Part shown: positions 3,436 through 60,320 of the stretch, piece by piece
Layout of the letters: each line of letters starts with the position of its first letter
Numbering within the stretch: position 1 is the first letter of the stretch
Assembly (NCBI RefSeq): GCF_900312745.1
Contig: NZ_OMPD01000005.1
Span: forward strand, 1 to 64,000
Direction: 5' to 3'
Source: Aquimarina sp. AU58
GTDB lineage: Bacteria; Bacteroidota; Bacteroidia; Flavobacteriales; Flavobacteriaceae
Length of the DNA stretch: 64,000 nt
The notes under the pieces: generated by a model
Told to the model about the DNA's origin: nothing
Database searches by the model: none
What the model saw: only the letters and a program-made list of their open reading frames with translations
Translations under genes and position numbers: made by a program

Positions 3436-3603
3436 CTATATTCCACAACAAATAAGTCCCAAATATTTGTCTCTCCTATATCCATAATCACAGCCACGGC
3501 CTGCTTTACATTCCCATGTATCCTCGCTACCACCGTTAATATTTCCCTGCTCATTTTTTTTGAGTTTATGAACTCCATTAAAATTTAAAATCTTTGTTAT
3601 CAT
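3436..3603 (-). CDS. Double-glycine leader peptide 1, four-Cys core (55 aa)
   Basis: An ORF of 55 codons from ATG 3603. The leader MITKILNFNGVHKLKKNEQG runs into NINGG, a bacteriocin-type double-glycine site (cleavage after residue 25). The ~30-residue core has four Cys arranged as C-x5-C ... CC and ends ICCGI. The core aligns with peptide 2: both show C-x5/6-C-x-YG, then K-[YF], then [IV]CCG. Predicted as an exported, matured small peptide (RiPP or bacteriocin-like); this is inference from leader and core only. A GACATA...TGAGTGTC motif lies 44 bp upstream. An out-of-frame ORF on the same strand is longer but lacks the leader logic. Confidence 0.75.
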   Translation of the reverse strand: MITKILNFNGVHKLKKNEQGNINGGSEDTWECKAGRGCDYGYRRDKYLGLICCGI

Positions 3604-3706: not shown

Positions 3707-3904
3707 TTAAGGGAAAGAGATACCATCATTTGGTGGTAAATATCCACAACATACAACATCACCAAATTTACTATCATCGATATGCCCATATCTACACCAT
3801 TTCCCTGGCGAAAGACAGACTGTATTTCCTCCTCCATTAATCTCAAGAAGTTGTTCCTTTTTAAGCTTTTTAGCTCCGTTTAATTCTAAAATTTGTTTTA
3901 GCAT
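3707..3904 (-). CDS. Double-glycine leader peptide 2, four-Cys core (65 aa)
   Basis: The frame can be extended upstream to 3952, but the ATG at 3904 gives the expected leader: MLKQILELNGAKKLKKEQLL, then EINGGG (processing after residue ~25). The mature part is ~40 residues with C-x6-C and a CC pair: CLSPGKWCRYG, then KFGDVVCCGY, and a short polar tail absent from peptide 1. Peptides 1 and 2 are clearly paralogous in both leader and core. The regulatory motif at 3948 is 43 bp upstream of this start, matching the other genes and supporting the start choice. Function inferred as a secreted antimicrobial or signalling peptide; no homologue is recognised. Confidence 0.75.
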   Translation of the reverse strand: MLKQILELNGAKKLKKEQLLEINGGGNTVCLSPGKWCRYGHIDDSKFGDVVCCGYLPPNDGISFP

Positions 3905-5440: not shown

Positions 5441-5608
5441 TTAGCAAGTATACTCTGGATCATTGGCTAAAAAGGGATAATTTGAAAGCCAAAAGCTTGG
5501 ATTACTACAAAACTCCCTTACTGAAGGTATATAACCTCCCTGAATTGTTTTTTGCTGTAGTTTGTGAAGGGTTTCTACTCCTTCTAAATTTTTAATCTGT
5601 TTTAACAT
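5441..5608 (-). CDS. Double-glycine leader peptide 3, two-Cys core (55 aa)
   Basis: 55 codons from ATG 5608. The leader MLKQIKNLEGVETLHKLQQ is followed by TIQGG, the same layout as peptides 1 and 2. The core of ~30 residues (YIPSVREFCSNPSFWLSNYP, ending DPEYTC) is aromatic and has two Cys spaced to form one disulfide or thioether ring closing at the C-terminal residue. It is the gene immediately upstream of the papain-like protein on the same strand, separated by a strong hairpin, and may be co-transcribed with it. No copy of the GACATA...TGAGTGTC motif was found upstream of this one. Unrecognised family; called from leader, size and context. Confidence 0.65.
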   Translation of the reverse strand: MLKQIKNLEGVETLHKLQQKTIQGGYIPSVREFCSNPSFWLSNYPFLANDPEYTC

Positions 5609-7411: not shown

Positions 7412-7745
7412 GTGTTCTATTAATTACAAAACAATTATTTCTTAGGTTTTTTCTTTCCTTCTTTCTTAATAGATTTAATTATTATTTCATGCTATTTTAG
7501 ATATCATAAAAAGGCTAACTGAAATCAAAAAAAGAATTGTTGCAAAATTTTCTTGCCGTCGAAGGGAATGAGGTTATTTTCCATATTCACAAAAACAAAT
7601 AATTGACTACCAATATCATTATTATATTTTGATACAACAGCAAGAAATTTTGTTGAAGCAAACATAGATTCAACTCTAAAAAAATTATAATGTAATTTGG
7701 GTTTTGTGACGAATACCCTATAAATTAGTGACGAATTATCTTTAT
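7412..7745. other. Intergenic region without gene
   Basis: 334 bp between two minus-strand genes. I see no ORF with coding character. A loose inverted repeat around AAATTTTCTTGC (7545-7556) and GCAAGAAATTTT (7640-7651) may be the terminator or operator region of the LytTR gene upstream on this strand. Confidence 0.4.
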
Positions 7746-10304
7746 CTAGAAATGGATTTTATCTAATTCGGAAACATATTTTGTGCTTACCGGTAATTTC
7801 TCATTATTAATCGTCACTTCGGTTTTTGATTTTGAATGTACTTTATCTAATCGAATAATATAAGATCTGTGAATCCTAATATATTCTAAAGGGTCGGGAG
7901 TAGATTCTATAAAGCAGCCAATTTTTGTTCTAAGGGTATAGTTTTTATGCTCTGTAATAATATCAATATAATTTCCAGAGGACTTAACATATAAGATTTC
8001 GTTAGTTTTTATTTTGATTTCTTTTTTACCTTCTTTAAATAAAATATACTTTTCATTTTTGTTTACCCGTTTTATTAATAAACGCATTAGTTCTCGAGTA
8101 AAACTTCGATTAGTATACAGTATTTTCATCCTAAGAAATAAATATATCAATAAAAGAATAGCGATTAGGCATGCTAGCTGAAACCACAAGGTTTTCCAGT
8201 AAGGAAGTTTAATAATAAAAGAGTACGTTTGTACATTTTCAGAACAATCTTTCTCATTATCACACGCCTTTACCATAAAAGTATAACTACCGTGTGGTAG
8301 TGAAGAAAACCTAATTTTTCGATTATCAGAGAATTGCCATTCTTCATCAAAGCCTTCTAATTTATATTTGTATTTTAATTTATTATTGGCAAATAATATT
8401 CCTTCAACAAAAAACTCAAGGTTATTTTCATTATACTTTAATTTTTGTGATCTAGAAGTAATCTGTATAGAATCATTAACTTTTAAGCTTTTAATTTTTA
8501 AAAAATAAGCACCGGGTTTATTTGATTCTAAAACAGATTTTGGAAAATACGTTATTCCTTTTTTTGTTCCTAACCATACTGTATCATCTATAATCTCAAT
8601 ATCTTCTATTTCATTACTAATTAACCCTTCTTGAACAGATACTCCTTTTATGTCGATATCCTTATCAACTCCAAATACAATCCTATTAACACCTTTATTG
8701 GTACAAGCCCATAGAACGTTTTCATTTTCAAAATAAATTTCTTTAATGGTGTTACTATTTAATCCATCTTTGGTATTTATTGTATATGTACTATCTTTTT
8801 TTACAACAATAATACCTTTGCCTACTGTAGCGAGATATAGTTCTTCTTTTTTAGGATGTATATCTATATCTTCAATTCTGGCATCAAAAAATGGTGTACC
8901 CTTCGGAAAAAATGAAGTGAAAGAGGTCTTATTTTGTTTAAATAAACCTTTAGAGGTTCCTATATACAACGTATCTTTTCTAATAATTGCATCTAGGACG
9001 CGATACGGAGTATCAATAGAGTTTACATATTCTGGTGTTATTATTCTCACTGCTCCATTACTTGATGCTAAAATAGTTGAACTACCATCTGGCTCCGAAA
9101 GTTTTAATGTATAGCCTAGATCAATATTTTTATTAAATGGGGTTATGAGTCTATTATTATTATAGATGAACAACTCGTTTTTTATAGTATCACTCGTAAC
9201 CAAACCATGAATATTACCAGTAGATTTACTAAACATTACAGCTTTTTTGTCTTGTTTAAAACGTACGATACATCCATCGGTTGTTGAAAAATACAATGCA
9301 TTATTTTCATCCTTTGCCAGGGAATTTACATGAGGGTTTTCTATAAATGGGATTCTTTTGTTTTTGATGCAAGGGTTCTTAATATAAAATACGCCAGAAT
9401 TTAATGTTGAAAACCAATACCCTCCATGGTGATCTATTAAAAAATTGGTTACCGATAATCCTTCTAAAAATGTGGTGTTTGTATTTCCATTAATATCAAC
9501 AATGCGAGCTCCTCCATGATGATATCCTACAAAAAACTGAGAATCATTTATCGTTTTAAGACCTAGAGGGCTATATTTATTTTTTATAGAAGTATGGATA
9601 TCTCCTTTATCGGTTATAACTTCTATTAATTCTCCATTAATAAAAATTGTATAAGACTTATTTCCTAAAGTAATAGCACTTCTTAATGTACCACCTTTTA
9701 GCCTGGTTTTTACTAAATGTTTGCTAAGTTCAGTAGTATCATTACTTAAAAAGAAAAACGGATTTTCTGAAAAAGTTTTTTTAGAAACTATATGTATACC
9801 TTCTACTAATTCAGTATCAGCCGGAGGTTGTAATATTTCCCCGCTTTTACTAATAATAATTTCACCATTAATTCCTTTTCCTCCAATATGTAACGATTGT
9901 TCAGCATCTAAATATATACTTTCTACAACCGATTTTTTACTAATCAGATTATTCAGTTTATCATTATAGTCATATAATTTTATTTCTTCAGACTTTTCAT
10001 CTATAAAGAATGTTTTTTGTGTATTTAAGGTTCTACACCAAATTTGACCATTAACCTGTGGGAAAAAATCTAAAACGGCGTCTTCTAGTTTCTCATTTGA
10101 TCCAAATTTTTCGAACTCATAACCATTATATCTAATAATACCTTTTTGAGTTGCCAACCATATATATCCTTTTTTATCCTGATATAAATCATATATCTGT
10201 GAGCTAGACAACCCATCATTTGTTCCATATGATGTATAGTTATAATCATTTTGGGCAAAGGAAAACGCAAAAAAGAATAAAAAAAGTAATCGGAATATCT
10301 TCAA
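7746..10304 (-). CDS. Membrane one-component regulator: propeller sensor, Y_Y_Y, TM, LytTR
   Basis: 852 residues. Signal peptide (MKIFRLLFLFFFAFSFA). A periplasmic two-bladed-propeller region of Reg_prop repeats follows (first DGLSSSQIYDLYQDKKGYIW at ~29; later KGLFKQN and NKGVNRI units) to ~residue 600. Next is a Y_Y_Y domain (~620-700, YKYKLEGFDEEW), one transmembrane helix (~708-728, LACLIAILLLIYLFL) and a C-terminal LytTR DNA-binding domain (~745-852, ILYVKSSGNYIDI and YIRIHRSYI). It has the sensor half of a hybrid two-component system but no kinase or receiver, so it should couple an extracellular cue directly to DNA. The likely target is a neighbouring gene. Complete, with no break seen. 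Confidence 0.9.
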   Translation of the reverse strand: MKIFRLLFLFFFAFSFAQNDYNYTSYGTNDGLSSSQIYDLYQDKKGYIWLATQKGIIRYNGYEFEKFGSNEKLEDAVLDFFPQVNGQIWCRTLNTQKTFFIDEKSEEIKLYDYNDKLNNLISKKSVVESIYLDAEQSLHIGGKGINGEIIISKSGEILQPPADTELVEGIHIVSKKTFSENPFFFLSNDTTELSKHLVKTRLKGGTLRSAITLGNKSYTIFINGELIEVITDKGDIHTSIKNKYSPLGLKTINDSQFFVGYHHGGARIVDINGNTNTTFLEGLSVTNFLIDHHGGYWFSTLNSGVFYIKNPCIKNKRIPFIENPHVNSLAKDENNALYFSTTDGCIVRFKQDKKAVMFSKSTGNIHGLVTSDTIKNELFIYNNNRLITPFNKNIDLGYTLKLSEPDGSSTILASSNGAVRIITPEYVNSIDTPYRVLDAIIRKDTLYIGTSKGLFKQNKTSFTSFFPKGTPFFDARIEDIDIHPKKEELYLATVGKGIIVVKKDSTYTINTKDGLNSNTIKEIYFENENVLWACTNKGVNRIVFGVDKDIDIKGVSVQEGLISNEIEDIEIIDDTVWLGTKKGITYFPKSVLESNKPGAYFLKIKSLKVNDSIQITSRSQKLKYNENNLEFFVEGILFANNKLKYKYKLEGFDEEWQFSDNRKIRFSSLPHGSYTFMVKACDNEKDCSENVQTYSFIIKLPYWKTLWFQLACLIAILLLIYLFLRMKILYTNRSFTRELMRLLIKRVNKNEKYILFKEGKKEIKIKTNEILYVKSSGNYIDIITEHKNYTLRTKIGCFIESTPDPLEYIRIHRSYIIRLDKVHSKSKTEVTINNEKLPVSTKYVSELDKIHF

Positions 10305-10482
10305 AATGATGACTATATATATTAAATTTTTAAAGCGTAATATTACAAAATAAGTCTGTTAATCATTTTAAAAAATTAAGTGAATTTTAAGTTAAAACCA
10401 CAAATTAAGTAATTTAATCCTGCATTGAAAATAACATAAAGTATCAAATACTAGTTGCGGAAAAAGTTATTTTTCCATAAAA

Positions 10483-10519
10483 AAAGCCCTCTGGATTATA
10501 GAATCCAGAGGGCTTTTTT
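10483..10519. terminator. Strong bidirectional terminator
   Basis: Twelve-bp perfect stem GCCCTCTGGATT / AATCCAGAGGGC with a four-base loop (10486-10513), flanked by an A-run and a T-run. It serves the minus-strand lyase gene ending at 10536. Confidence 0.9.
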
Positions 10520-10535
10520 GTAGAAATACTGTTTA

Positions 10536-11813
10536 TTAATTTAGAGCTTTTTCAACCTTAGCTTTTACTTTTTCTAATGCCTGTTCTAAGTCCCAGACCA
10601 AATCTTTAGCATGCTCTACACCTATTGATAATCTTACCAATTGGTCTGTAATATTCATTTCTTGTCTTTGTTCTTCATCTACACCTGCATGTGTCATAGT
10701 TTTGGGATGCTCTGCCAAACTTTCTGTACCACCCAAGCTTACTGCCAGTTTCATTAGTTTAAGATTATTAAGGAATATAAATGCTTCTTCTTCTCCCCCT
10801 ATAATATCAAAAGATACCATTGCTCCAGGAGCAGAACATTGCTTTTGAAATGTTTTATACCCTTCTGTTTCTTCTTCTAATAATCCCAAATAGTATACGT
10901 TTTCAATCTTAGGATGATTATTTAAATAATCAGCAATGATCTGAGCATTTTTCGTTTGCTGATCCATTCTTACCTTTAAGGTTTCTAAACTCCTAAGTAG
11001 TAACCACGCTGTATGTGGGCTTACCATATTCCCCAGGAAAGTACGAAGTGTTTTTACTCTTAACATTAATTCTGCATTCCCCAAAACTGCTCCTGCTATG
11101 AGATCACTATGGCCTCCTATATATTTTGTAGCAGAGTACAGTACTAAGTCTGCTCCACATTGTAAAGGGTGTTGCCATAATGGTCCCATATACGTATTAT
11201 CTACAGCTACCAAAGCTTTTCTGTCATTAGTACTAAATTGTTTGGCAATCTGGCTATATTTTTCGATATCGACAATATCATTGGTTGGATTGGCAGGAGT
11301 TTCGAGATAAATCATTGCTAATTGATCTGATTTTCCAGAATCTTCGATCATTTTAATCACTTCATCTGTACTTTGATTTGGCATTACTCCTATAGTATGA
11401 ACTCCTATTTTATCCAAAAAATGATGAATAAAATGATCTGTTCCTCCATATAATGGATTACTATATACTAGTAAATCTCCGGGTTTAAGGAATTCTAACA
11501 ATACTGTACTTATTGCAGACATTCCACTTTCAAAAACTGCACAATCATCTGCTTTATCCCATAAACATAGGCGATTTTCCAGGATTTCTAGGTTGGGGTT
11601 ATTAATTCTACTATAAATAAGACCAAGTTCTTCTTTTGGAGATTTCTCCCTTAAACCATAGGCTAATTCAAAAAAAGCTTTTCCCTCTTCTGCAGTTTTA
11701 AAAACAAAGGTTGATGTTTGAAAAATAGGGCACTTTATGGCTCCTTCTGATAATTCTGGCTTATAACCATGAGTCATCATTAAACTCTCGGGGTTAAAAT
11801 CGTGTTTCTTCAT
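10536..11813 (-). CDS. Cys/Met metabolism PLP enzyme, methionine gamma-lyase type
   Basis: 425 residues of the cystathionine-gamma-synthase / methionine gamma-lyase family. PLP contacts are visible: SGMSAISTVLLEF near residue 100 (phosphate loop), the substrate Tyr in NPLYGGTDH near 120, and the Schiff-base Lys in LYSATKYIGGHSD near 220; GGTESLAEHP near 375 closes the site. Which reaction it runs cannot be read off, but the divergent Lrp-type regulator matches the mdeA-mdeR pairing known for methionine gamma-lyase, where the product degrades methionine to methanethiol, ammonia and 2-oxobutyrate. Insertions at ~50-60 (LREKSPKEELG) mark a distinct subfamily. Confidence 0.85.
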   Translation of the reverse strand: MKKHDFNPESLMMTHGYKPELSEGAIKCPIFQTSTFVFKTAEEGKAFFELAYGLREKSPKEELGLIYSRINNPNLEILENRLCLWDKADDCAVFESGMSAISTVLLEFLKPGDLLVYSNPLYGGTDHFIHHFLDKIGVHTIGVMPNQSTDEVIKMIEDSGKSDQLAMIYLETPANPTNDIVDIEKYSQIAKQFSTNDRKALVAVDNTYMGPLWQHPLQCGADLVLYSATKYIGGHSDLIAGAVLGNAELMLRVKTLRTFLGNMVSPHTAWLLLRSLETLKVRMDQQTKNAQIIADYLNNHPKIENVYYLGLLEEETEGYKTFQKQCSAPGAMVSFDIIGGEEEAFIFLNNLKLMKLAVSLGGTESLAEHPKTMTHAGVDEEQRQEMNITDQLVRLSIGVEHAKDLVWDLEQALEKVKAKVEKALN

Positions 11814-53075: not shown

Positions 53076-55649
53076 TTATTTAATCATTATTTTTTCTGAA
53101 ACACTTCGACTGCCATCAGATATTGTTATAAAATAAATACCCGATGTTATTCCCTCTAAAGAAATTTTGTTATCGTTTACTACTCCAGATTTTATTACAC
53201 GACCTTGCATATTTGTCAATGTAAAACTACTGTCATGCTTATTTCTCAAGCTAATTTGAATATAAGTTGTAGCTGGATTAGGGTATACTTTGGCCAAGAA
53301 CACTTTATCTTCCTGTTCTAATTTTCTATCAACTTTTATTGATGATGCTCCTTTAGCTCCCATGGTTGACCCTATATTTACAGTATAATCTTCTACTTCT
53401 CCATATCCAAAAGTTTCACAAGATGTTGGTACTCCGTTCCATTTCATAGCAACTCGCATTCGAGTATTTCCTAATGCTGCTGTAGATGGTATATCAAAAT
53501 TATATGATAGGTTGCTTGTCTCTGATGTAGATGCACTAACTACTTTTTCAGTCCCTTCAAAAGTTCCGTTTTTATTAAAATCAATCCATACCGCCCAATG
53601 TTCTGTATAAGATGCACTTGCAAACCCAACACTTAATACAATAGTATTAGCTCCATAGTTAAGATTTGCTACCTGAGCGGTAAAATCTCCATAACCGCCA
53701 TTAGCTAATGTGGTGTTAGAGATCCCTCCTATTCCCACATAGTCAATATATTCATACTTTACAGTATTTCCTTTTGACGCACAATAGGAAACTACAGTAT
53801 CAAGAGTAGTAACGGTTACTGTATTACTAGATGCTGAAGCATTTCCTGCTGCATCAAATGCAGATATTTTAAATGAATAGTTCGTTCCTGCTGCCAAGCC
53901 AGATACATTATACGAAACTCCGGTAGTTGTCGTTAGTACTGCTCCATCTTGATAAATCGTATATCCTGTAACCCCAATATTATCGGTAGAGGCTGTCCAG
54001 GAAAGTTGTGTGCTATTTTCTGTGATATTAGCAACTGTTACATTGGTAGGGGTTGTAGGAGTTTCAGTATCTGAACCGGTATTACCACCTCCATTGAATG
54101 TATGCTTTCCCAGGCCATCAAAGGTATTTTGGGGATATGACTCCCACTCAGATGTGTTATATGTTGCAGATGGTGATGATACATCTGCTTTTCTTCTTAG
54201 AGTAGCATCCTTAGCAAAGTTAGACGATCCCCCATTAAAAGTTCCTATCACATCTATTAAAACCCCATCCTTAAATAAGCCTACGGGGTCATTACCATTA
54301 AAAGTCAATTCTGAAGCTCCCGAAACCAGATCTGCTTCATTTTTTATAGTATTCGAAGCCGAACTATTTGCAGCTACATAAACATCATTAGTAGCCAAAA
54401 CACCAGAAAGGTTTAATCCTCCCGACCAGGATCCGGAGCCATTAGTTTGTCTTTTGATTGTATATCCTGAAAGGTTAACCGATGCGCCTGTATAATTTGC
54501 TATTTCTAAAGCCTTATTATTCGAAGATCCTTCTATATACTCCGAAAAAAACAATGCCGTAGCATCACCACCAGTTGAAGTATCTTGAGTGGTAACATTA
54601 ATCGCAGTACTAGCTGCAGATATATTACCTGCTGCATCTTTCGCTTTTACAGAAAATGAATACGTAGTGTTAGCGGTTAATCCCGAAACGCTATAACTGT
54701 TTGTTGATGAAGAACTTAAAAATGCTCCATTTCTATATACATCATATCCTGTTACACCAACATTATCTGTTGATGCACTCCATGATAATACTGTAGATGT
54801 CTGAGTTGTATTTGTTGCTACGAGATTAGCAGGAATACTGGGTGCCTCCGTATCATTACCTCCTGTATCTCCAAACCTATCTTCGGCTTGGGGTCCTCCC
54901 CAAATCTGAGTAGCAAATGCAGGATTATCTATAAATGGGTTTCTGTTACCTTGTATATTTTCAAGAATTGGATTACGTTGTAATTCTAATGGCGAAACAG
55001 GATCCTCTGCATTCCATTCTAAAAATAATTGTAGCATATTGCTATCACCAGTTGCTGCTGCCCCTACTCCAACATTCTTTGGCAAACAACGATTATTATA
55101 CCGTATATACATATACATCATCATACGTGCTACATCTCCTTTCCATTCATCACCAGGATACCAATGTCCTTGAGAAGTAGGTCCAGAATTACCAGATCCA
55201 TCTGCAAACTTTCTATTTCCTCTTGATGAATTGCGCTGTACATCTGCAGGTCGTAAGTGATGTGCATCTGCTCCTGGCCCTTGTGTTCCCAGATTTGGGT
55301 TACCTAATGATTTTGGATATACGTGCTCCCTGTTCCAATCGGTAGATCCTCCCCCATTATTATTTACTCCTCGTGTTCTGTCTGTACTCGAATTTCCATC
55401 AGTATCACTATATCCATATACTAAAACAACTTTTGAAGGATCAGAAGGTTCTAAATCGGTCTGCTTTAATGCATCCCACACCCCTGGTGTATAACTAAGA
55501 AATGTGGTATGTGTATTTGTCACCTTATCACTTAATTCATTTTTTAAAGCAGTTCCTGATAAGCTTAGGTTCACATCATTGTAATATGATGGTATCTGGC
55601 TATACCCTATAACAGGTATAAACAGAAGTAAGAGTATTATTTTTTTCAT
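53076..55649 (-). CDS. T9SS-secreted endonuclease I family nuclease with FnIII and lamin-tail domains
   Basis: 857 residues from ATG 55649 (start at 55676 adds nine residues before the signal). Signal peptide MKKIILLLLFIPVIGYSQ. Endonuclease I domain (~20-270): DWNREHVYPKSLG near residue 110 and ADAHHLRPADVQRN near 135 hold the His-metal nuclease site. Then FnIII 1 (~275-360, LSWSASTDNVGVTGY), a lamin-tail domain (~370-500, FFSEYIEGSSNNKALEI), FnIII 2 (~530-620), a GEVED-type beta domain (~630-760, GYGEVEDYTVNI) and a type A T9SS tail (~785-857, VYPNPATTYIQIS, ending SEKIMIK). A large extracellular DNase, likely for DNA scavenging or biofilm turnover. Confidence 0.93.
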   Translation of the reverse strand: MKKIILLLLFIPVIGYSQIPSYYNDVNLSLSGTALKNELSDKVTNTHTTFLSYTPGVWDALKQTDLEPSDPSKVVLVYGYSDTDGNSSTDRTRGVNNNGGGSTDWNREHVYPKSLGNPNLGTQGPGADAHHLRPADVQRNSSRGNRKFADGSGNSGPTSQGHWYPGDEWKGDVARMMMYMYIRYNNRCLPKNVGVGAAATGDSNMLQLFLEWNAEDPVSPLELQRNPILENIQGNRNPFIDNPAFATQIWGGPQAEDRFGDTGGNDTEAPSIPANLVATNTTQTSTVLSWSASTDNVGVTGYDVYRNGAFLSSSSTNSYSVSGLTANTTYSFSVKAKDAAGNISAASTAINVTTQDTSTGGDATALFFSEYIEGSSNNKALEIANYTGASVNLSGYTIKRQTNGSGSWSGGLNLSGVLATNDVYVAANSSASNTIKNEADLVSGASELTFNGNDPVGLFKDGVLIDVIGTFNGGSSNFAKDATLRRKADVSSPSATYNTSEWESYPQNTFDGLGKHTFNGGGNTGSDTETPTTPTNVTVANITENSTQLSWTASTDNIGVTGYTIYQDGAVLTTTTGVSYNVSGLAAGTNYSFKISAFDAAGNASASSNTVTVTTLDTVVSYCASKGNTVKYEYIDYVGIGGISNTTLANGGYGDFTAQVANLNYGANTIVLSVGFASASYTEHWAVWIDFNKNGTFEGTEKVVSASTSETSNLSYNFDIPSTAALGNTRMRVAMKWNGVPTSCETFGYGEVEDYTVNIGSTMGAKGASSIKVDRKLEQEDKVFLAKVYPNPATTYIQISLRNKHDSSFTLTNMQGRVIKSGVVNDNKISLEGITSGIYFITISDGSRSVSEKIMIK

Positions 55650-56092
55650 GATGTTATAAGTTAGTTTATTAAGCATAATTATGCGATCTCGAATCTAAAA
55701 TTATTTTGTTAAACTTACTATAGTAAAACGTTATCAAATAGTTACCTAGTATGTTGACAATCCACTATTTACACAAAAACATATATTCAAATCACTACAA
55801 TTCAATCAATTACTATCCCTAACGATTGTTAATAAGTTATTTCTTACAAAAAACAAGAGTGTCATTTACAACAAATTTCTGTAAAAAAATACAAAATCAT
55901 AAACATGATTTTTGCTCATAATATTACTAATAGTCAATACTCTTAGCATTTTCTGTTATAAAATTTTATTCTCTGAGTGACTTAATCCAAAGTTATAAAC
56001 AAGACCAATACCTTACTTTTTTAGCGGTTTTTATGTAACTGACTTACAATATTTTAAATTAAATTTAAACCATAACTTAAATATAATACACG
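55650..56092. other. Intergenic region upstream of the second peptide cluster
   Basis: 443 bp without an ORF of coding character. The last ~70 bp (ACTGACTTACAATATTTTAA, 56038 on) recur before the second peptide gene (56373-56430) and probably hold the promoter. A CTCTGAGTGACTT word near 55973 only weakly resembles the cluster 1 motif. Confidence 0.5.
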
Positions 56093-56278
56093 ATGAAAAA
56101 AATCTTGAATGTTACAGGAGTTCAGAAGTTAAGTAAAGACCAGCAACAAAATATTAAAGGAGCATGGGGGCGTGCAACTTGCTGCCCTAGTGGAAGAGGA
56201 TGCCTTATTAGCTTTGGAAATCAAAGTTTTTGTGAGCCTGGTCGTTGTGACCGTTGGGGGCGTTGTATCTTTTTCTAA
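56093..56278 (+). CDS. Six-Cys GG-type peptide A1 (61 aa)
   Basis: Leader MKKILNVTGVQKLSKDQQQ followed by NIKG|AWGR (bacteriocin-like G-[AST] cleavage site near residue 22-23) and a ~39-residue core with six Cys: CC-x5-C-x9-C-x4-C-x5-C, ending CDRWGRCIFF. The core is identical in amino acids to A2. The leader is the same class as in the 3.4-5.6 kb cluster. The gene has its own terminator at 56297. Cys spacing suggests a three-disulfide, cystine-knot-like or defensin-like fold. Activity unknown; likely exported and cleaved. Confidence 0.8.
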   Translation: MKKILNVTGVQKLSKDQQQNIKGAWGRATCCPSGRGCLISFGNQSFCEPGRCDRWGRCIFF

Positions 56279-56296
56279 GAAAATTCAAAACCATAC

Positions 56297-56328
56297 AAAA
56301 GGCAAACTTTCTGGTTTGCCTTTTTTTG
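56297..56328 (+). terminator. Terminator after peptide A1
   Basis: AAAAGGCAAAC / GTTTGCCTTTT stem with a short loop and a seven-base T-run. Confidence 0.85.
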
Positions 56329-56427
56329 TACTACATTTTTAATTAAAAACAATGTTATTTAACGTTTTAAAAAACTGACTCACACTATTTTAAAGTATAT
56401 TTAAATACTAACTTAAATATATATACA

Positions 56428-56604
56428 ATGAAAACTATTTTAGAATTAACTGGTGTTCAAAAATTAAGTAAAGAACAACAACAGCAAATTAAAGGAACAT
56501 GGGGACGTGCCACCTGCTGCGGACCTAGAAAATGTCGTATTCCTGGAACAAGTTTTTGTGATTATGGATATTGCCGATCTAACGGAAGTTGTATGTGGGC
56601 ATAA
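56428..56604 (+). CDS. Six-Cys GG-type peptide B1 (58 aa)
   Basis: 58 codons (ATG 56428). Leader MKTILELTGVQKLSKEQQQ, then QIKG|TWGRATCC; core Cys pattern CC-x4-C-x7-C-x4-C-x5-C with GPRKCRIPGTSFCDYGYC and CRSNGSCMWA. The first core residues (WGRATCC) match type A, the rest differ: DYGYC-x5-C-MWA replaces EPGRC-x5-C-IFF. It is the first of two type-B genes alternating with type-A genes. Confidence 0.8.
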   Translation: MKTILELTGVQKLSKEQQQQIKGTWGRATCCGPRKCRIPGTSFCDYGYCRSNGSCMWA

Positions 56605-56680
56605 CCAAAATAACACTGTGTGAAAGTATTAAAAGATAATAGCGAATCTCTATGTTATTCTATTAAAAATAACCCAATTT

Positions 56681-56853
56681 ATAAGTTGAAATTTATAAAT
56701 ATCAAGAATATGGAGTTGTATTTTACTACATGATCCAATATTTTTAATGGAGAAAATCTGAATTATTAACTTTTAAAACTTTCACACAATGAAAAACATT
56801 TTGGAATTAACCGGTGTTCAAAAACTATCTAAACAACAACAACAAAATATTAA
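56681..56853 (+). repeat. Direct repeat unit, promoter plus leader, copy 1
   Basis: About 173 bp (upstream region and first ~22 codons of A2) recurring at 57370-57542 with roughly eight differences, an offset of 689 bp. Confidence 0.8.
56691..56709 (+). promoter_or_regulatory. 19-bp motif in the A2 promoter
   Basis: ATTTATAAATATCAAGAAT, inside a ~170-bp block repeated before A3 and shared with 20473-20491; 80 bp from the A2 start. Confidence 0.4.
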
Positions 56854-56974
56854 AGGAGCATGGGGGCGTGCAACTTGCTGCCCTAGTGGAAGAGGATGTC
56901 TCATTAGCTTTGGAAATCAAAGTTTTTGTGAACCTGGTCGCTGTGACCGTTGGGGGCGTTGTATCTTTTTCTAA
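56789..56974 (+). CDS. Six-Cys GG-type peptide A2 (61 aa)
   Basis: Core identical to A1 (CC-x5-C-x9-C-x4-C-x5-C, IFF end), but the leader (MKNILELTGVQKLSKQQQQ) and the 108 bp upstream match A3 instead. From CAACAAAATATTAAAGGAGC through the core and ~20 bp past the stop the DNA is nearly the same as A1. The gene therefore looks like a recombinant of A3-type promoter/leader and A1-type core. A terminator follows at 56998. Confidence 0.85.
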   Translation: MKNILELTGVQKLSKQQQQNIKGAWGRATCCPSGRGCLISFGNQSFCEPGRCDRWGRCIFF

Positions 56975-56997
56975 GAAAATTCAAAACCATACGTAAA

Positions 56998-57025
56998 GAC
57001 AAACTTTTAGGTTTGTCATTTTTTT
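56998..57025 (+). terminator. Terminator after peptide A2
   Basis: GACAAAC / GTTTGTC stem (56998-57004 and 57011-57017) followed by a seven-base T-run; diverged relative of the A1 terminator. Confidence 0.75.
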
Positions 57026-57105
57026 GATCATTACCAATTGGTTCTGGTAAAGCAGCATCATTGTACTCAAAATTGAATTATTAACTTTTTTAAATATTTT
57101 ACAAA

Positions 57106-57294
57106 ATGAAGAATATCTTAAATTTAACTGGAGTTCAAAAATTATCCAAAAAAGAGCAACAAGACATCAAAGGTTCCTGGGGTCGCAGAGTATATTGTGG
57201 CGGACCAAAAAGATGTTGTTTCCGTCTTCCTAATGGAGCAGAATTTTGCGATTATGGATATTGTCAATCCAATGGAAACTGTATTTGGGCATAA
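57106..57294 (+). CDS. Six-Cys GG-type peptide B2 (62 aa)
   Basis: Leader MKNILNLTGVQKLSKKEQQ, then DIKG|SWGRRVYC; core Cys pattern C-x5-CC-x9-C-x4-C-x5-C, with FCDYGYCQSNGNCIWA matching B1's end. Compared with the other four peptides, the CC pair has moved from the first to the second Cys position while the total stays six. Ends 'CIWA', as B1 ends 'CMWA'. Confidence 0.8.
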   Translation: MKNILNLTGVQKLSKKEQQDIKGSWGRRVYCGGPKRCCFRLPNGAEFCDYGYCQSNGNCIWA

Positions 57295-57369
57295 CCAAAA
57301 CAGTATTGGGTATCATCCCTAAAAGATGGTAGTGAATCTCCTATTATTACTCTTTTAAAACAGTTTTTT

Positions 57370-57542
57370 ATAAGTTGAAATTTATAAATCTCAAGAATAT
57401 GGTGTTGTATTTCACTACATGATCCAATATTTTTAATGGAGAAAATCTGAATTATTAACTTTTAAAACTTTCATACAATGAAAAACATTTTGGAATTAAC
57501 TGGAGTTCAAAAACTATCCAAACAACAACAACGTAATATTAA
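57370..57542 (+). repeat. Direct repeat unit, promoter plus leader, copy 2
   Basis: Second copy of the 56681-56853 block. The 19-bp motif has one change here (57380-57398). Confidence 0.8.
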
Positions 57543-57660
57543 AGGAGCTATGGCGAGCATATCGTGTTGTGGACGTAACAAATGTCGAATTAGTTATCCT
57601 GGAGGAAGTTTTTGTGAACCAGGTAGATGTAACACATGGGGACAATGTATTTTATATTAA
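57478..57660 (+). CDS. Six-Cys GG-type peptide A3 (60 aa)
   Basis: Leader MKNILELTGVQKLSKQQQR, then NIKG|AMASISCC; core CC-x4-C-x8-C-x4-C-x5-C, with SYPGGSFCEPGRC and CNTWGQCILY. Keeps the type-A EPGRC ending but has diverged elsewhere in the core. Promoter and leader block copied from or to A2. Last gene of the array, closed by the terminator at 57690. Confidence 0.8.
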   Translation: MKNILELTGVQKLSKQQQRNIKGAMASISCCGRNKCRISYPGGSFCEPGRCNTWGQCILY

Positions 57661-58590: not shown

Positions 58591-59328
58591 TTATTTCTTA
58601 ATAAACCTTTCCTTAAAATAATGAGAATAATTACTTCCCAATGGTAGCGTAATATCCCCTATTTGTATTCTATTAGCATCTATTTTATTAACGTGTTTTA
58701 AATTTACCAGGTAGCTTTTATGAATTCGGCAAAATTCAAACAAGGACAATTCTTTATCAATTTTAGAGATCGTATTTCTAATAATTTTTATTTCTCCGTC
58801 GGTAAGGAATAGTTTTAAATAATTACCATAAGATTGAATATACAGTAAAGATTCATAAGTAATCTTATGAATAGTCTTCCCCTCTTTTATACAAAAATAG
58901 GTCGGATTAGTATTAGCAGTATTAGTTTCAAAATTTTGAGAAGTTTCTTTTTTCTCTAACGTAATCATTTTTTTTGCCCGTTCTAAAGCTTTAACAAAAC
59001 GAACAAATTTTATAGGCTTCAATAAATAATCTACCACCAAATCATAATTGTACGTTTCTATAGCGTAGTCAGAATAAGCCGTAACCATTATCACTTTTAT
59101 ATCCTCTTTTTGAAGAGTATCTAATAGCTCAATTCCAGAGATTTCTGGCATTTGTATATCCAAAAGAATAATATCTACCGGTTGCTTATTAATTTCGTTA
59201 AGTGCTTCTAAACCATTATAGCAGTTTCCTACTATTTTTACGTAATCTAGTTTATTACAATAACTTTCTAATAAATGATGAGCATAAGGCTCATCATCGA
59301 TAATAAGTATAGTATAGGTAGCATTCAT
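58591..59328 (-). CDS. LytTR-family response regulator
   Basis: 245 residues. Receiver domain at 1-120: acidic pocket ILIIDDEPYAHH, phosphoacceptor Asp in IILLDIQMPEISG near 55, and the conserved Lys in YLLKPIKFVRFVKALERAKK near 105. A short linker leads to the LytTR DNA-binding domain (~145-245: LLYIQSYGNYLKLFL; FCRIHKSYLVNLKHV). Partner of the kinase whose gene overlaps it by four bases. In Bacteroidota such LytSR-type pairs often regulate nearby surface or secreted functions; the divergent S41 protease and the peptide array are candidate targets. Confidence 0.93.
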   Translation of the reverse strand: MNATYTILIIDDEPYAHHLLESYCNKLDYVKIVGNCYNGLEALNEINKQPVDIILLDIQMPEISGIELLDTLQKEDIKVIMVTAYSDYAIETYNYDLVVDYLLKPIKFVRFVKALERAKKMITLEKKETSQNFETNTANTNPTYFCIKEGKTIHKITYESLLYIQSYGNYLKLFLTDGEIKIIRNTISKIDKELSLFEFCRIHKSYLVNLKHVNKIDANRIQIGDITLPLGSNYSHYFKERFIKK

Positions 59329-60320
59329 AACTTAATAATTAAATAAACGCGATAAGTTTCATTCTTTTCTTCGATAATTAGTTGATGTCTGTCTGGATAA
59401 ATGAGTTGTAAACGCTTTATGGTATTTTTTTGTCCGATATTATTTTTAGAAACTTTTTGATTTTTAAACAGACTATTTTCTATAATTAACTCTAGCCTAA
59501 ATTTGTCATAAGACAGCTTAATATTTATAAAACTAGGAAGTGAAGTATGTGTTCCGTGTTTAAATGCATTTTCAACAAAAGGCAAAAGAAGAAGCGGCGC
59601 TATAGAAGTTTTAATATCTGTTGTAGGTCGCTCAAACTTTACCGAACAATTATCTCGTAATCTCATCTTTTCCAATTCTATGAAAGCTTCTATAAGTTGA
59701 ATTTCTTTACGAACCGGAATTCTCTGAACAGTTGAAAATTCTAAATGATATCTAAGTAATTCAGCTAAGTTAATTAGCATTTCAGTACTTTTCTCTGAAT
59801 CGACCTGGTTAACACCGCAAATGTTATTGATAGTATTAAACAAAAAATGAGGGTTGAGCTGAGCTTTCAATACGTGAATTTCCATTTTCAGTTTGTCTAC
59901 CTGAAGTTTTTGGAGTTCTAATTGACTTATAATACCTCTCTTTGCTATTCGAGACACCACAACAATAAAAGAAATGATAAACATATTTTGGATCCATTGT
60001 CTAATATCTACTTCGGCTCCTTCACCATATAAATAAGTGCAAAAATATGCAGCACAGTATCCTATAATTGCAGTAATTATAATGGCAACAATACCAAAAT
60101 AGATATACTGTTTTTTAGGAAAAAAATAATCTTGAAAAAAGAACAAAAGATACGTTAGGATAATAGAAGGAATAATAATGGTAATTGTATCCAAAACCTT
60201 TTCTGTTATGTCAGTATTTTCTGAAGACCAAAAAGCAAGAATCACTAGTATAGCGAGTACCCAAATTAAAGAGTGATAATACCATCGCTTTTTTAGTATT
60301 TTTTCTACCATTTTCATCAA
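59325..60320 (-). CDS. LytS-family sensor histidine kinase
   Basis: 331 residues. Four transmembrane helices fill ~13-140 (WVLAILVILAFW; ITIIIPSIILTYLLFFF; FGIVAIIITAIIGYCAAYF; MFIISFIVVVSRIA) with only short loops, so the sensor is membrane-embedded. Phosphoacceptor His in LNPHFLFNTINNICG near 160, the N box in LLPFVENAFKHGTH near 245 and a short G-box end KNTIKRLQLIYPDRHQL. The gene overlaps the regulator ATG by four bases. It senses an unknown membrane or cell-wall cue. Confidence 0.9.
   Translation of the reverse strand: MMKMVEKILKKRWYYHSLIWVLAILVILAFWSSENTDITEKVLDTITIIIPSIILTYLLFFFQDYFFPKKQYIYFGIVAIIITAIIGYCAAYFCTYLYGEGAEVDIRQWIQNMFIISFIVVVSRIAKRGIISQLELQKLQVDKLKMEIHVLKAQLNPHFLFNTINNICGVNQVDSEKSTEMLINLAELLRYHLEFSTVQRIPVRKEIQLIEAFIELEKMRLRDNCSVKFERPTTDIKTSIAPLLLLPFVENAFKHGTHTSLPSFINIKLSYDKFRLELIIENSLFKNQKVSKNNIGQKNTIKRLQLIYPDRHQLIIEEKNETYRVYLIIKL

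What the first reader, a model, noticed from the sequence alone, without database searches (positions are those of the whole stretch)
56093..57660. Array of five six-cysteine peptides with bacteriocin-like leaders
A1, B1, A2, B2 and A3 each encode ~60 residues with a conserved leader and exactly six core Cys, all ending C-x4-C-x5-C-[IM]-aromatic/aliphatic. The spacing suggests three disulfides (defensin- or knottin-like) or thioether rings. Two of them have own terminators, implying high individual expression. I know no described bacterial family with this pattern.
Basis: partly seen in the sequence, partly recalled or inferred. Interest (0 to 1): 0.85.

Follow-up and report, generated by a model that had tools for sequence, protein, structure and literature searches.

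The report
Secreted six-cysteine peptides of Aquimarina
A marine bacterium carries a row of five small genes for what look like secreted mini-proteins held together by three sulfur bridges; they belong to a previously unnamed family that seems to ride a widespread export and bridge-forming machinery in flavobacteria, but what they do outside the cell is unknown.

Summary
In detail: five ORFs at 56093-57660 (58-62 aa) share a leader and have exactly six core Cys; two have own terminators. The genome is, by its nearest named relatives, an Aquimarina. Relatives occur in 49 of 66 genomes of the genus, mostly at one chromosomal spot beside an endonuclease-I gene. One hundred distinct members (a lower bound) fall into two frameworks, CC-x(4-11)-C-... 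and C-x(5-7)-CC-...; one Cys appears to move. Cores are under purifying selection. No Pfam, convincing PDB-sequence or fold match was found.

Thioether rings are excluded as the common chemistry (17 of 34 type II cores have fewer than three Ser/Thr). The leader is PCAT-type, expected to be cut after G-[A/S/T]. The same leader type, on other Cys-rich cores, lies beside C39-like-VKOR-thioredoxin proteins (21 of 30 loci) and PCAT-HlyD exporters elsewhere; none of these is linked to the array itself. Best reading: precursors are exported and cut by a PCAT and oxidised to three disulfides by such a VKOR fusion, in trans. The biological role is open: no immunity gene found, conservation rather than arms race. 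Defensin and knottin membership fail on Cys spacing. A new family within the double-glycine secreted-peptide kind.

The parts
56038..56092 (+). upstream element of A1, putative promoter/5' leader; similar to that of B1 and of first genes in other species
   Evidence: by eye in the listing; sigma-70 scan does not cover Bacteroidota promoters
56093..56278 (+). A1 precursor, 61 aa; leader 56093-56164 ending GA, core 56165-56275, type I framework CC-x5-C-x9-C-x4-C-x5-C
56297..56324 (+). terminator-like hairpin behind A1
56374..56427 (+). upstream element of B1, similar to that of A1
   Evidence: by eye
56428..56604 (+). B1 precursor, 58 aa; leader ends GT (unusual), core 56500-56601; type I Cys framework with the C-terminal motif of type II (CDYGYC..NG.CMWA), looks like a natural chimera
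56789..56974 (+). A2 precursor, 61 aa; core identical to A1 in protein (4 synonymous differences), leader ends GA
56998..57017 (+). terminator-like hairpin behind A2
57106..57294 (+). B2 precursor, 62 aa; leader ends GS, core 57178-57291, type II framework C-x5-CC-x9-C-x4-C-x5-C, only one Ser/Thr in the core
57478..57660 (+). A3 precursor, 60 aa; leader ends GA, core 57550-57657, type I framework CC-x4-C-x9-C-x4-C-x5-C
53076..55676 (-). syntenic neighbour: secreted nuclease (Endonuclease_1, fn3, LTD, GEVED, Por_Secre_tail); marks the conserved chromosomal spot, no functional link shown

Best explanation
The array encodes precursors of secreted, three-disulfide mini-proteins of 34-38 residues, a family nearly confined to the genus of the window (Aquimarina). 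Steps: (1) five short genes are transcribed, with terminators behind A1 and A2; (2) the 24-residue leader is bound by the C39 peptidase of a PCAT exporter and cut after G-A, G-S or G-T; (3) the core leaves through PCAT-HlyD (most likely the pair at G000:C14:289418, P0001 and the HlyD gene behind it) and an outer-membrane channel; (4) the six Cys are oxidised to three disulfides, most likely by a C39-like-VKOR-thioredoxin fusion such as P0002, working in trans; (5) A-type and B-type peptides are released as a mixture and act outside the cell, most likely as antagonistic (microcin-like) peptides. Shown: the genes, their conservation, the two frameworks, the leader type, the presence of PCATs and VKOR fusions in the genome, and the physical linkage of the same leader type to these enzymes at other loci and in other genera. 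Inferred: cleavage, export, oxidation in trans, Cys pairing, antagonistic role (the last at about 0.35).
For: Family and conservation. Leader: a profile built from 16 leaders of other genera scores 100 of 100 family precursors above the best of 2000 shuffles; the last two leader residues are GG, GA or GS in 92 of 100 and -4 I, -12 L, -15 V in all five window genes, matching the PCAT rule quoted in PMC7018657 (passages); 4 PCATs in the own genome. Disulfides: in 21 of 30 VKOR-fusion loci a leader peptide with 3-8 Cys lies within 1.5 kb, against 9 of 134 background 3-kb bins (15 of 24 if the six loci of genomes used to train the profile are dropped). P0002 reaches the Pfam cut-off for VKOR and Thioredoxin_4, has just six Cys at 193, 201, 268, 271, 381, 384 and lies beside four leader peptides with CC in knottin-like order in the own genome. 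Exporter: P0001 is full length with C39 and no leader peptide or modifying enzyme was found beside it in 20 kb; its orthologues run VKOR-PCAT-HlyD in 8 of 9 loci fetched. Thioether excluded.
Against: No PCAT, HlyD or VKOR fusion (tblastn E<=1e-5) lies in any of the 43 array loci, which mostly reach 5 kb to each side, so export and oxidation are assigned in trans. The co-occurrence of P0001 and P0002 with the family in the genus (49 of 49 positives, against 1 and 4 of 17 negatives) is largely explained by ancestry: of 13 negatives with an AckA match, 12 rank below every positive. P0002's C39-like part is below the Pfam cut-off (15.5 against 22 bits). Leader position -7 is Gln and B1 ends GT. 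Strong purifying selection and no shared candidate immunity gene do not fit a classical bacteriocin. AlphaFold models are only moderate (pLDDT 80, pTM 0.46-0.47). No expression data.
Confidence: 0.66

Rival explanations
1. Same secretion and disulfides, but the peptides are signals or public goods of the producer (pheromone, biofilm or surface factor), not weapons.
For: A1-type cores are almost invariant in five loci of different species (pN/pS 0.018; orthology by eye); one chromosomal spot in most loci; no shared candidate immunity gene; no relative confirmed in viral contigs.
Against: Up to 18 profile matches per genome and two divergent frameworks are more than one signal needs; apart from the nuclease, acetate kinase, phosphate acetyltransferase and one TPR-like cluster, no ORF cluster of 90 aa or more is shared by more than 6 of 43 loci; the LytTR/histidine kinase pair near the array is shared with one other locus only (L076).
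Confidence: 0.3
2. Toxins aimed at eukaryotes (algae, grazers) of the marine surface habitat; disulfide-stitched mini-proteins would work there like animal and plant knottins.
For: No immunity gene would be needed; sister peptides of the own genome have knottin-like Cys order; Aquimarina lives with algae and invertebrates (recalled).
Against: No activity data; array cores do not fit knottin spacing.
Confidence: 0.15
3. Lanthipeptide or other thioether RiPP.
For: Small Cys-rich precursors with bacteriocin-like leader; the genome has a LanC-like and a lantibiotic dehydratase gene.
Against: 17 of 34 type II cores have at most two Ser/Thr, two have none; B2 has one; those Lan genes lie beside other PCATs at other places of the genome and no ORF cluster of an enzyme is shared among the array loci.
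Confidence: 0.03
4. Metal-binding (metallothionein-like) small proteins that stay reduced.
For: Six Cys including CC.
Against: Export-type leader; fixed Cys number with variable loops as in disulfide peptides; relatives of the leader sit beside a disulfide-forming enzyme.
Confidence: 0.04

Closest known systems
Double-glycine (GG) peptides of peptidase-containing ABC transporters, incl. class II bacteriocins and class II microcins
   Same: short leader with hydrophobic -4, -12, -15 and a G-G/A/S end; PCAT and HlyD in the genome; small cationic core
   Different: no linked transporter and no shared candidate immunity gene, six Cys in new frameworks, -7 is Gln, GT in B1, array of paralogues under strong purifying selection
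NCBIfam NF047798 leader_Chryseo ('bacteriocin-like protein')
   Same: leader stretch resembles it (best 14.3 bits)
   Different: below its cut-off of 23.5 bits; a model of 18 leader positions only
Knottins / inhibitor cystine knots
   Same: six Cys in about 35 residues; four sister peptides of the own genome (L107) have C-x4-C-x(7-9)-CC-x(4-5)-C-x4-C
   Different: array cores have CC at positions 1-2 or 2-3 and 7-9 residues between third and fourth Cys; no fold match
Bacterial cis-defensins (actifensin, and the five classes of PMC11561630)
   Same: small Cys-rich bacterial peptides with three disulfides
   Different: the pattern used in PMC11561630 needs CX3C and CXC, absent between neighbouring Cys in all 100 members
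TMcin (PMC13252029, abstract and one section)
   Same: a disulfide-forming enzyme dedicated to a secreted peptide
   Different: there a DsbA-family protein in the cluster and one disulfide; here a C39-like-VKOR-thioredoxin fusion, six Cys, and (inferred) action in trans

Membership tests
GG peptide of a PCAT | leader ending in GG, GA or GS | tested here: met
   92 of 100 family members; four of the five window genes, B1 has GT
GG peptide of a PCAT | hydrophobic residues at three or four of -4, -7, -12, -15 | tested here: met
   I, L, V at -4, -12, -15 in all five; -7 is Gln; rule from passages of PMC7018657
GG peptide of a PCAT | PCAT with C39 domain in the genome | tested here: met
   4 over the Pfam cut-off
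GG peptide of a PCAT | cleavage and export by that PCAT | not testable with these tools
   needs experiment
class II bacteriocin/microcin | linked transporter | tested here: not met
   no PCAT, HlyD or VKOR fusion in 43 loci by tblastn
class II bacteriocin/microcin | linked immunity gene | tested here: inconclusive
   no shared non-family ORF of 90 aa or more explains one; shared ORFs of 40-120 aa looked at were further family members or appear to lie inside neighbouring genes, judged by eye for the 8 largest clusters; a species-specific immunity gene would be missed
class II bacteriocin/microcin | antibacterial activity | not testable with these tools
   needs experiment
knottin (ICK) | Cys spacing C-x(3-7)-C-x(3-8)-C-x(0-7)-C-x(1-4)-C-x(4-13)-C (recalled) | tested here: not met
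   window members have 0-5-9-4-5, 0-4-7-4-5, 5-0-9-4-5 and 0-4-9-4-5
knottin (ICK) | pairing I-IV, II-V, III-VI | not testable with these tools
   needs MS/NMR
bacterial cis-defensin | CX(2,18)CX(3)CX(2,12)CX(4,17)CXC | tested here: not met
   no spacing of 3 or 1 between neighbouring Cys in 100 members; pattern from a passage of PMC11561630
lanthipeptide | a Ser/Thr for every thioether ring | tested here: not met
   17 of 34 type II cores have fewer than three
NF047798 leader_Chryseo | score over curated cut-off | tested here: not met
   8.3-14.3 against 23.5 bits for four of the five proteins (A2 not scanned there)

The most novel reading that the evidence does not exclude
Flavobacteriaceae have a leader-guided oxidative-folding pathway: a membrane enzyme made of a C39-like domain without catalytic Cys (leader reader), VKOR and thioredoxin stitches disulfides into PCAT-exported peptides, and this lets one leader carry many different Cys-rich cores (knottin-ordered ones, and the Aquimarina six-Cys family with a hopping cysteine), a bacterial counterpart of the conotoxin strategy of constant leader and varied disulfide core.
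Probability: 0.45. Interest if true: 0.86.

Novelty: new variant of a known kind. Interest (0 to 1): 0.66.

Why it matters
If right, it gives a natural family of at least 100 small three-disulfide scaffolds from a Gram-negative bacterium, with a likely exporter and a likely bridge-forming enzyme; the paper searches named in the report found none described. The moving Cys (one of six at either of two places) makes disulfide pairing testable from sequence, and the C39-like-VKOR-thioredoxin fusion makes the question of how Gram-negative bacteria fold secreted multi-disulfide peptides directly testable.

Tried and rejected
Pfam (all five window peptides) and NCBIfam (four of five) gave nothing above cut-off. 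PDB sequence searches gave three weak hits with A1 (best: Ly6/PLAUR domain 6zss, E 0.0044), one with the type I profile (6zss, E 0.086) and none with the type II profile; I rejected 6zss as a match of Cys and Gly in a short stretch. Fold search: no chain with Z 2 or more among 36 (type I model) and 712 (type II model); best Foldseek E 1.3 for type II; Foldseek listing not asked for type I. Viral contigs: 71 stretches matched the pattern, none confirmed. Two-peptide (class IIb) reading: of 43 loci 18 hold both frameworks among my hundred members, 13 only type I, 9 only type II, 3 none; some loci are cut by contig ends and my leader pattern missed members (see below), so this only makes an obligate pair less likely. 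Genus-level co-occurrence with P0001 and P0002 looked striking but follows ancestry, so I give it little weight.

Errors found on the way: the first leader pattern was wrong and found one ORF (corrected). The corrected pattern still misses members whose leader has Asn for Ser/Thr: one search shows a further six-Cys family member type in 8 loci (example L062 5882-6076), so 100 is a lower bound. One of the six 'type I with D.G' rows is a pattern artefact; five are real, all B1-like. Two paper look-ups failed on badly formed terms.

Full report
WHAT IS THERE. A1 and A2 have identical 37-residue cores that differ by four synonymous changes. Terminator-like hairpins follow A1 and A2. Upstream of A1 and of B1 lies a similar AT-rich element that also stands before first genes in other species (by eye). 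Cores counted from behind the last leader residue are 37, 34, 37, 38 and 36 residues, pI 8.7-8.9, net charge +3 or +4.

WHERE IT LIVES. A pattern scan of one genome per species gave 42 loci, most of them of named or uncultured Aquimarina, with two loci of a 'Bacteroidia bacterium' MAG and one of 'Flavobacteriaceae bacterium RhTr2'; that the window is an Aquimarina is inferred from this. The window's genome G000 has 6.19 Mb and 20 matches to a profile of ten members at E<=0.001. With a profile of 78 members, 49 of 66 genomes of the genus are positive at E<=1e-6, with up to 18 matches. With core-only profiles, among 397 Flavobacteriaceae genomes 6 (type II) and 7 (type I) have a match at E<=0.01; I take G000, G311, G177 (same genus), G384 and G179 (other genera) as convincing, the other five matched genomes (E 0.003-0.009) as chance. 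So the core family is near genus-specific, while the leader is not.

TWO FRAMEWORKS. From the window and the loci fetched until then I extracted 146 distinct ORFs with this leader, 114 with six core Cys; 66 are type I (CC-x(4-11)-C-x(5-11)-C-x4-C-x(4-8)-C) and 34 type II (C-x(5-7)-CC-x(8-9)-C-x4-C-x(4-8)-C). The other 14 six-Cys ORFs have other spacings and were dropped; 32 ORFs have other Cys numbers. My leader pattern misses some members, so 100 is a lower bound. In the alignments five Cys columns are shared and one Cys stands either before the second or behind the third; the register of the first block is ambiguous, the B1/B2 pair favours this reading. All 34 type II members carry C[DG]-x-G-x-C; among type I only the five B1-like ones do (one artefact removed). 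B1 thus looks like a chimera of the two types.

SELECTION. pN/pS over loci of close species is 0.018 for A1-type cores (five loci, one of which may be an A2 orthologue), 0 for A2 (two), 0.127 for B1 (four), 0.075 for B2 (three), 0.241 for A3 (six); leaders 0.029-0.199 (orthology by eye, pairs not independent). The genes are real and constrained.

PLACE IN THE CHROMOSOME. In 33 of 43 loci (42 plus the window) the stretch holds the same gene, in the window a secreted Endonuclease_1 protein with a Por secretion tail, and in 25 of 43 acetate kinase and phosphate acetyltransferase. In G000 acetate kinase is about 13 kb downstream. By tblastn no PCAT, HlyD or VKOR fusion lies in the 43 loci. Besides the nuclease, acetate kinase, phosphate acetyltransferase and one cluster in 14 loci, no ORF cluster of 90 aa or more is in more than 6 loci. 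The eight most shared small ORF groups near the arrays are one missed family member and ORFs that appear to overlap neighbouring genes (by eye).

LEADER AND EXPORT. PCAT substrates end in GG, sometimes GA or GS, and are bound through three or four hydrophobic residues at -4, -7, -12, -15 (PMC7018657, passages). The family has GG/GA/GS in 92 of 100, and I, L, V at -4, -12, -15 in all five window genes; -7 is Gln. A profile from 16 leaders lying near VKOR or PCAT genes in other genera scores all 100 precursors above the best of 2000 shuffles. G000 has four PCATs. One lies near a LanC-like gene, one near a lantibiotic dehydratase, one near an ATP-grasp-like gene (the last by eye). The fourth, P0001 with HlyD, has no leader peptide or such enzyme in 20 kb and is the natural trans exporter; but the leader profile also finds no peptide in two of the other three PCAT stretches.

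OXIDATION. In other Flavobacteriaceae the same leader type precedes other Cys-rich cores, and these genes lie beside a protein of about 530 aa with VKOR and Thioredoxin domains and a C39-like N-terminus (VKOR and thioredoxin over the Pfam cut-off in five of five fusions scanned, C39 over it in two of five, P0002 not among them). Of 249 genomes 32 have such a protein. Of 30 loci fetched (of 44 matches), 21 have at least one leader peptide within 1.5 kb, with 3-8 Cys, against 9 of 134 background bins of 3 kb (Fisher p 7e-13; loci of related genomes are not independent). Six of the 30 come from genomes whose leaders trained the profile; without them it is 15 of 24. In G000 P0002 lies beside four leader peptides with C-x4-C-x(7-9)-CC-x(4-5)-C-x4-C, a knottin-like order of which two fit the strict spacing. 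P0002 has six Cys only: 193, 201, 268, 271 in the VKOR part and 381, 384 in the thioredoxin part, so its C39-like part cannot be a Cys protease; that it reads the leader is my inference. In nine genomes of the genus a P0001 orthologue and a VKOR fusion lie within about 3 kb by coordinates; I fetched these nine and in eight VKOR, PCAT and HlyD follow each other on one strand, in the ninth the VKOR gene is on the other strand. Of the 32 VKOR-positive genomes 15 were positive for the A1 profile, where 22 of 299 were.

WHAT SPEAKS AGAINST. All 49 family-positive genomes have a P0001 orthologue of at least 84% identity (one as a 568-residue piece) and a VKOR fusion, against 1 (83%) and 4 of 17 negatives; but of the 13 negatives with an AckA match 12 rank below every positive (four negatives and one positive had no match), so this is mostly shared ancestry. 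The trans assignment therefore rests on leader similarity and on linkage elsewhere. No candidate immunity gene and strong conservation do not fit a classical bacteriocin. Nothing here shows expression.

STRUCTURE. AlphaFold2 with alignments of 47 and 24 cores gave pLDDT 80 and pTM 0.46-0.47, strands only; no fold match. By strand register the moved Cys of type II (residue 14) would face Cys 24 across the hairpin; this is read from the secondary-structure line only.

LITERATURE. Ten searches listed no paper that by title or abstract start deals with this family or with a C39-VKOR enzyme acting on peptides; VKOR and C39 occur together in seven papers, unrelated by title. Seen: PMC7018657, PMC11561630, PMC7440613, PMC3482391 (passages), PMC13252029 (abstract and one section); all others as listings. 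The library lacks most subscription journals, so absence is weak evidence.

VERDICT. A real, apparently undescribed, near genus-specific family of six-Cys peptides of the double-glycine kind, with a plausible and unusual oxidation partner; role unknown.

Noticed in passing
window 3436-3603 (-), 3707-3904 (-), 5441-5608 (-): Three more leader-bearing small peptides with four, four and two Cys; their neighbours were not examined for a modifying enzyme.
   Followed up: partly
L107 (G000:C2:750000-769900) 9618-11270 (-): Four leader peptides with C-x4-C-x(7-9)-CC-x(4-5)-C-x4-C beside the C39-like-VKOR-thioredoxin gene at 7557-9143.
   Followed up: partly
L107 6273-7073 (-): Four very similar Cys-free leader peptides spaced 214 bases apart, beside the VKOR locus; function unclear.
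   Followed up: no
L029 and L039/L151 (other Flavobacteriaceae): Leader peptides with knottin-like spacing 6-6-0-4-8 and 7-4-0-4-7.
   Followed up: partly
window 58591-60320 (-): LytTR response regulator and histidine kinase pair just downstream of the array; among the 43 loci shared with L076 only.
   Followed up: no
G309:C20:25748-25930: A family match with a stop inside beside acetate kinase: possibly decay of the array in one genome.
   Followed up: no
L099 9775-10165 (-); L086, L087, L089, L090: A second site of the family: two type II peptides in tandem in the own genome and between the same neighbours in three of four other loci (in L086 my pattern found one).
   Followed up: partly
L062 5882-6076 and seven other loci: A further six-Cys family member with Asn in the leader, missed by my pattern.
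   Followed up: no
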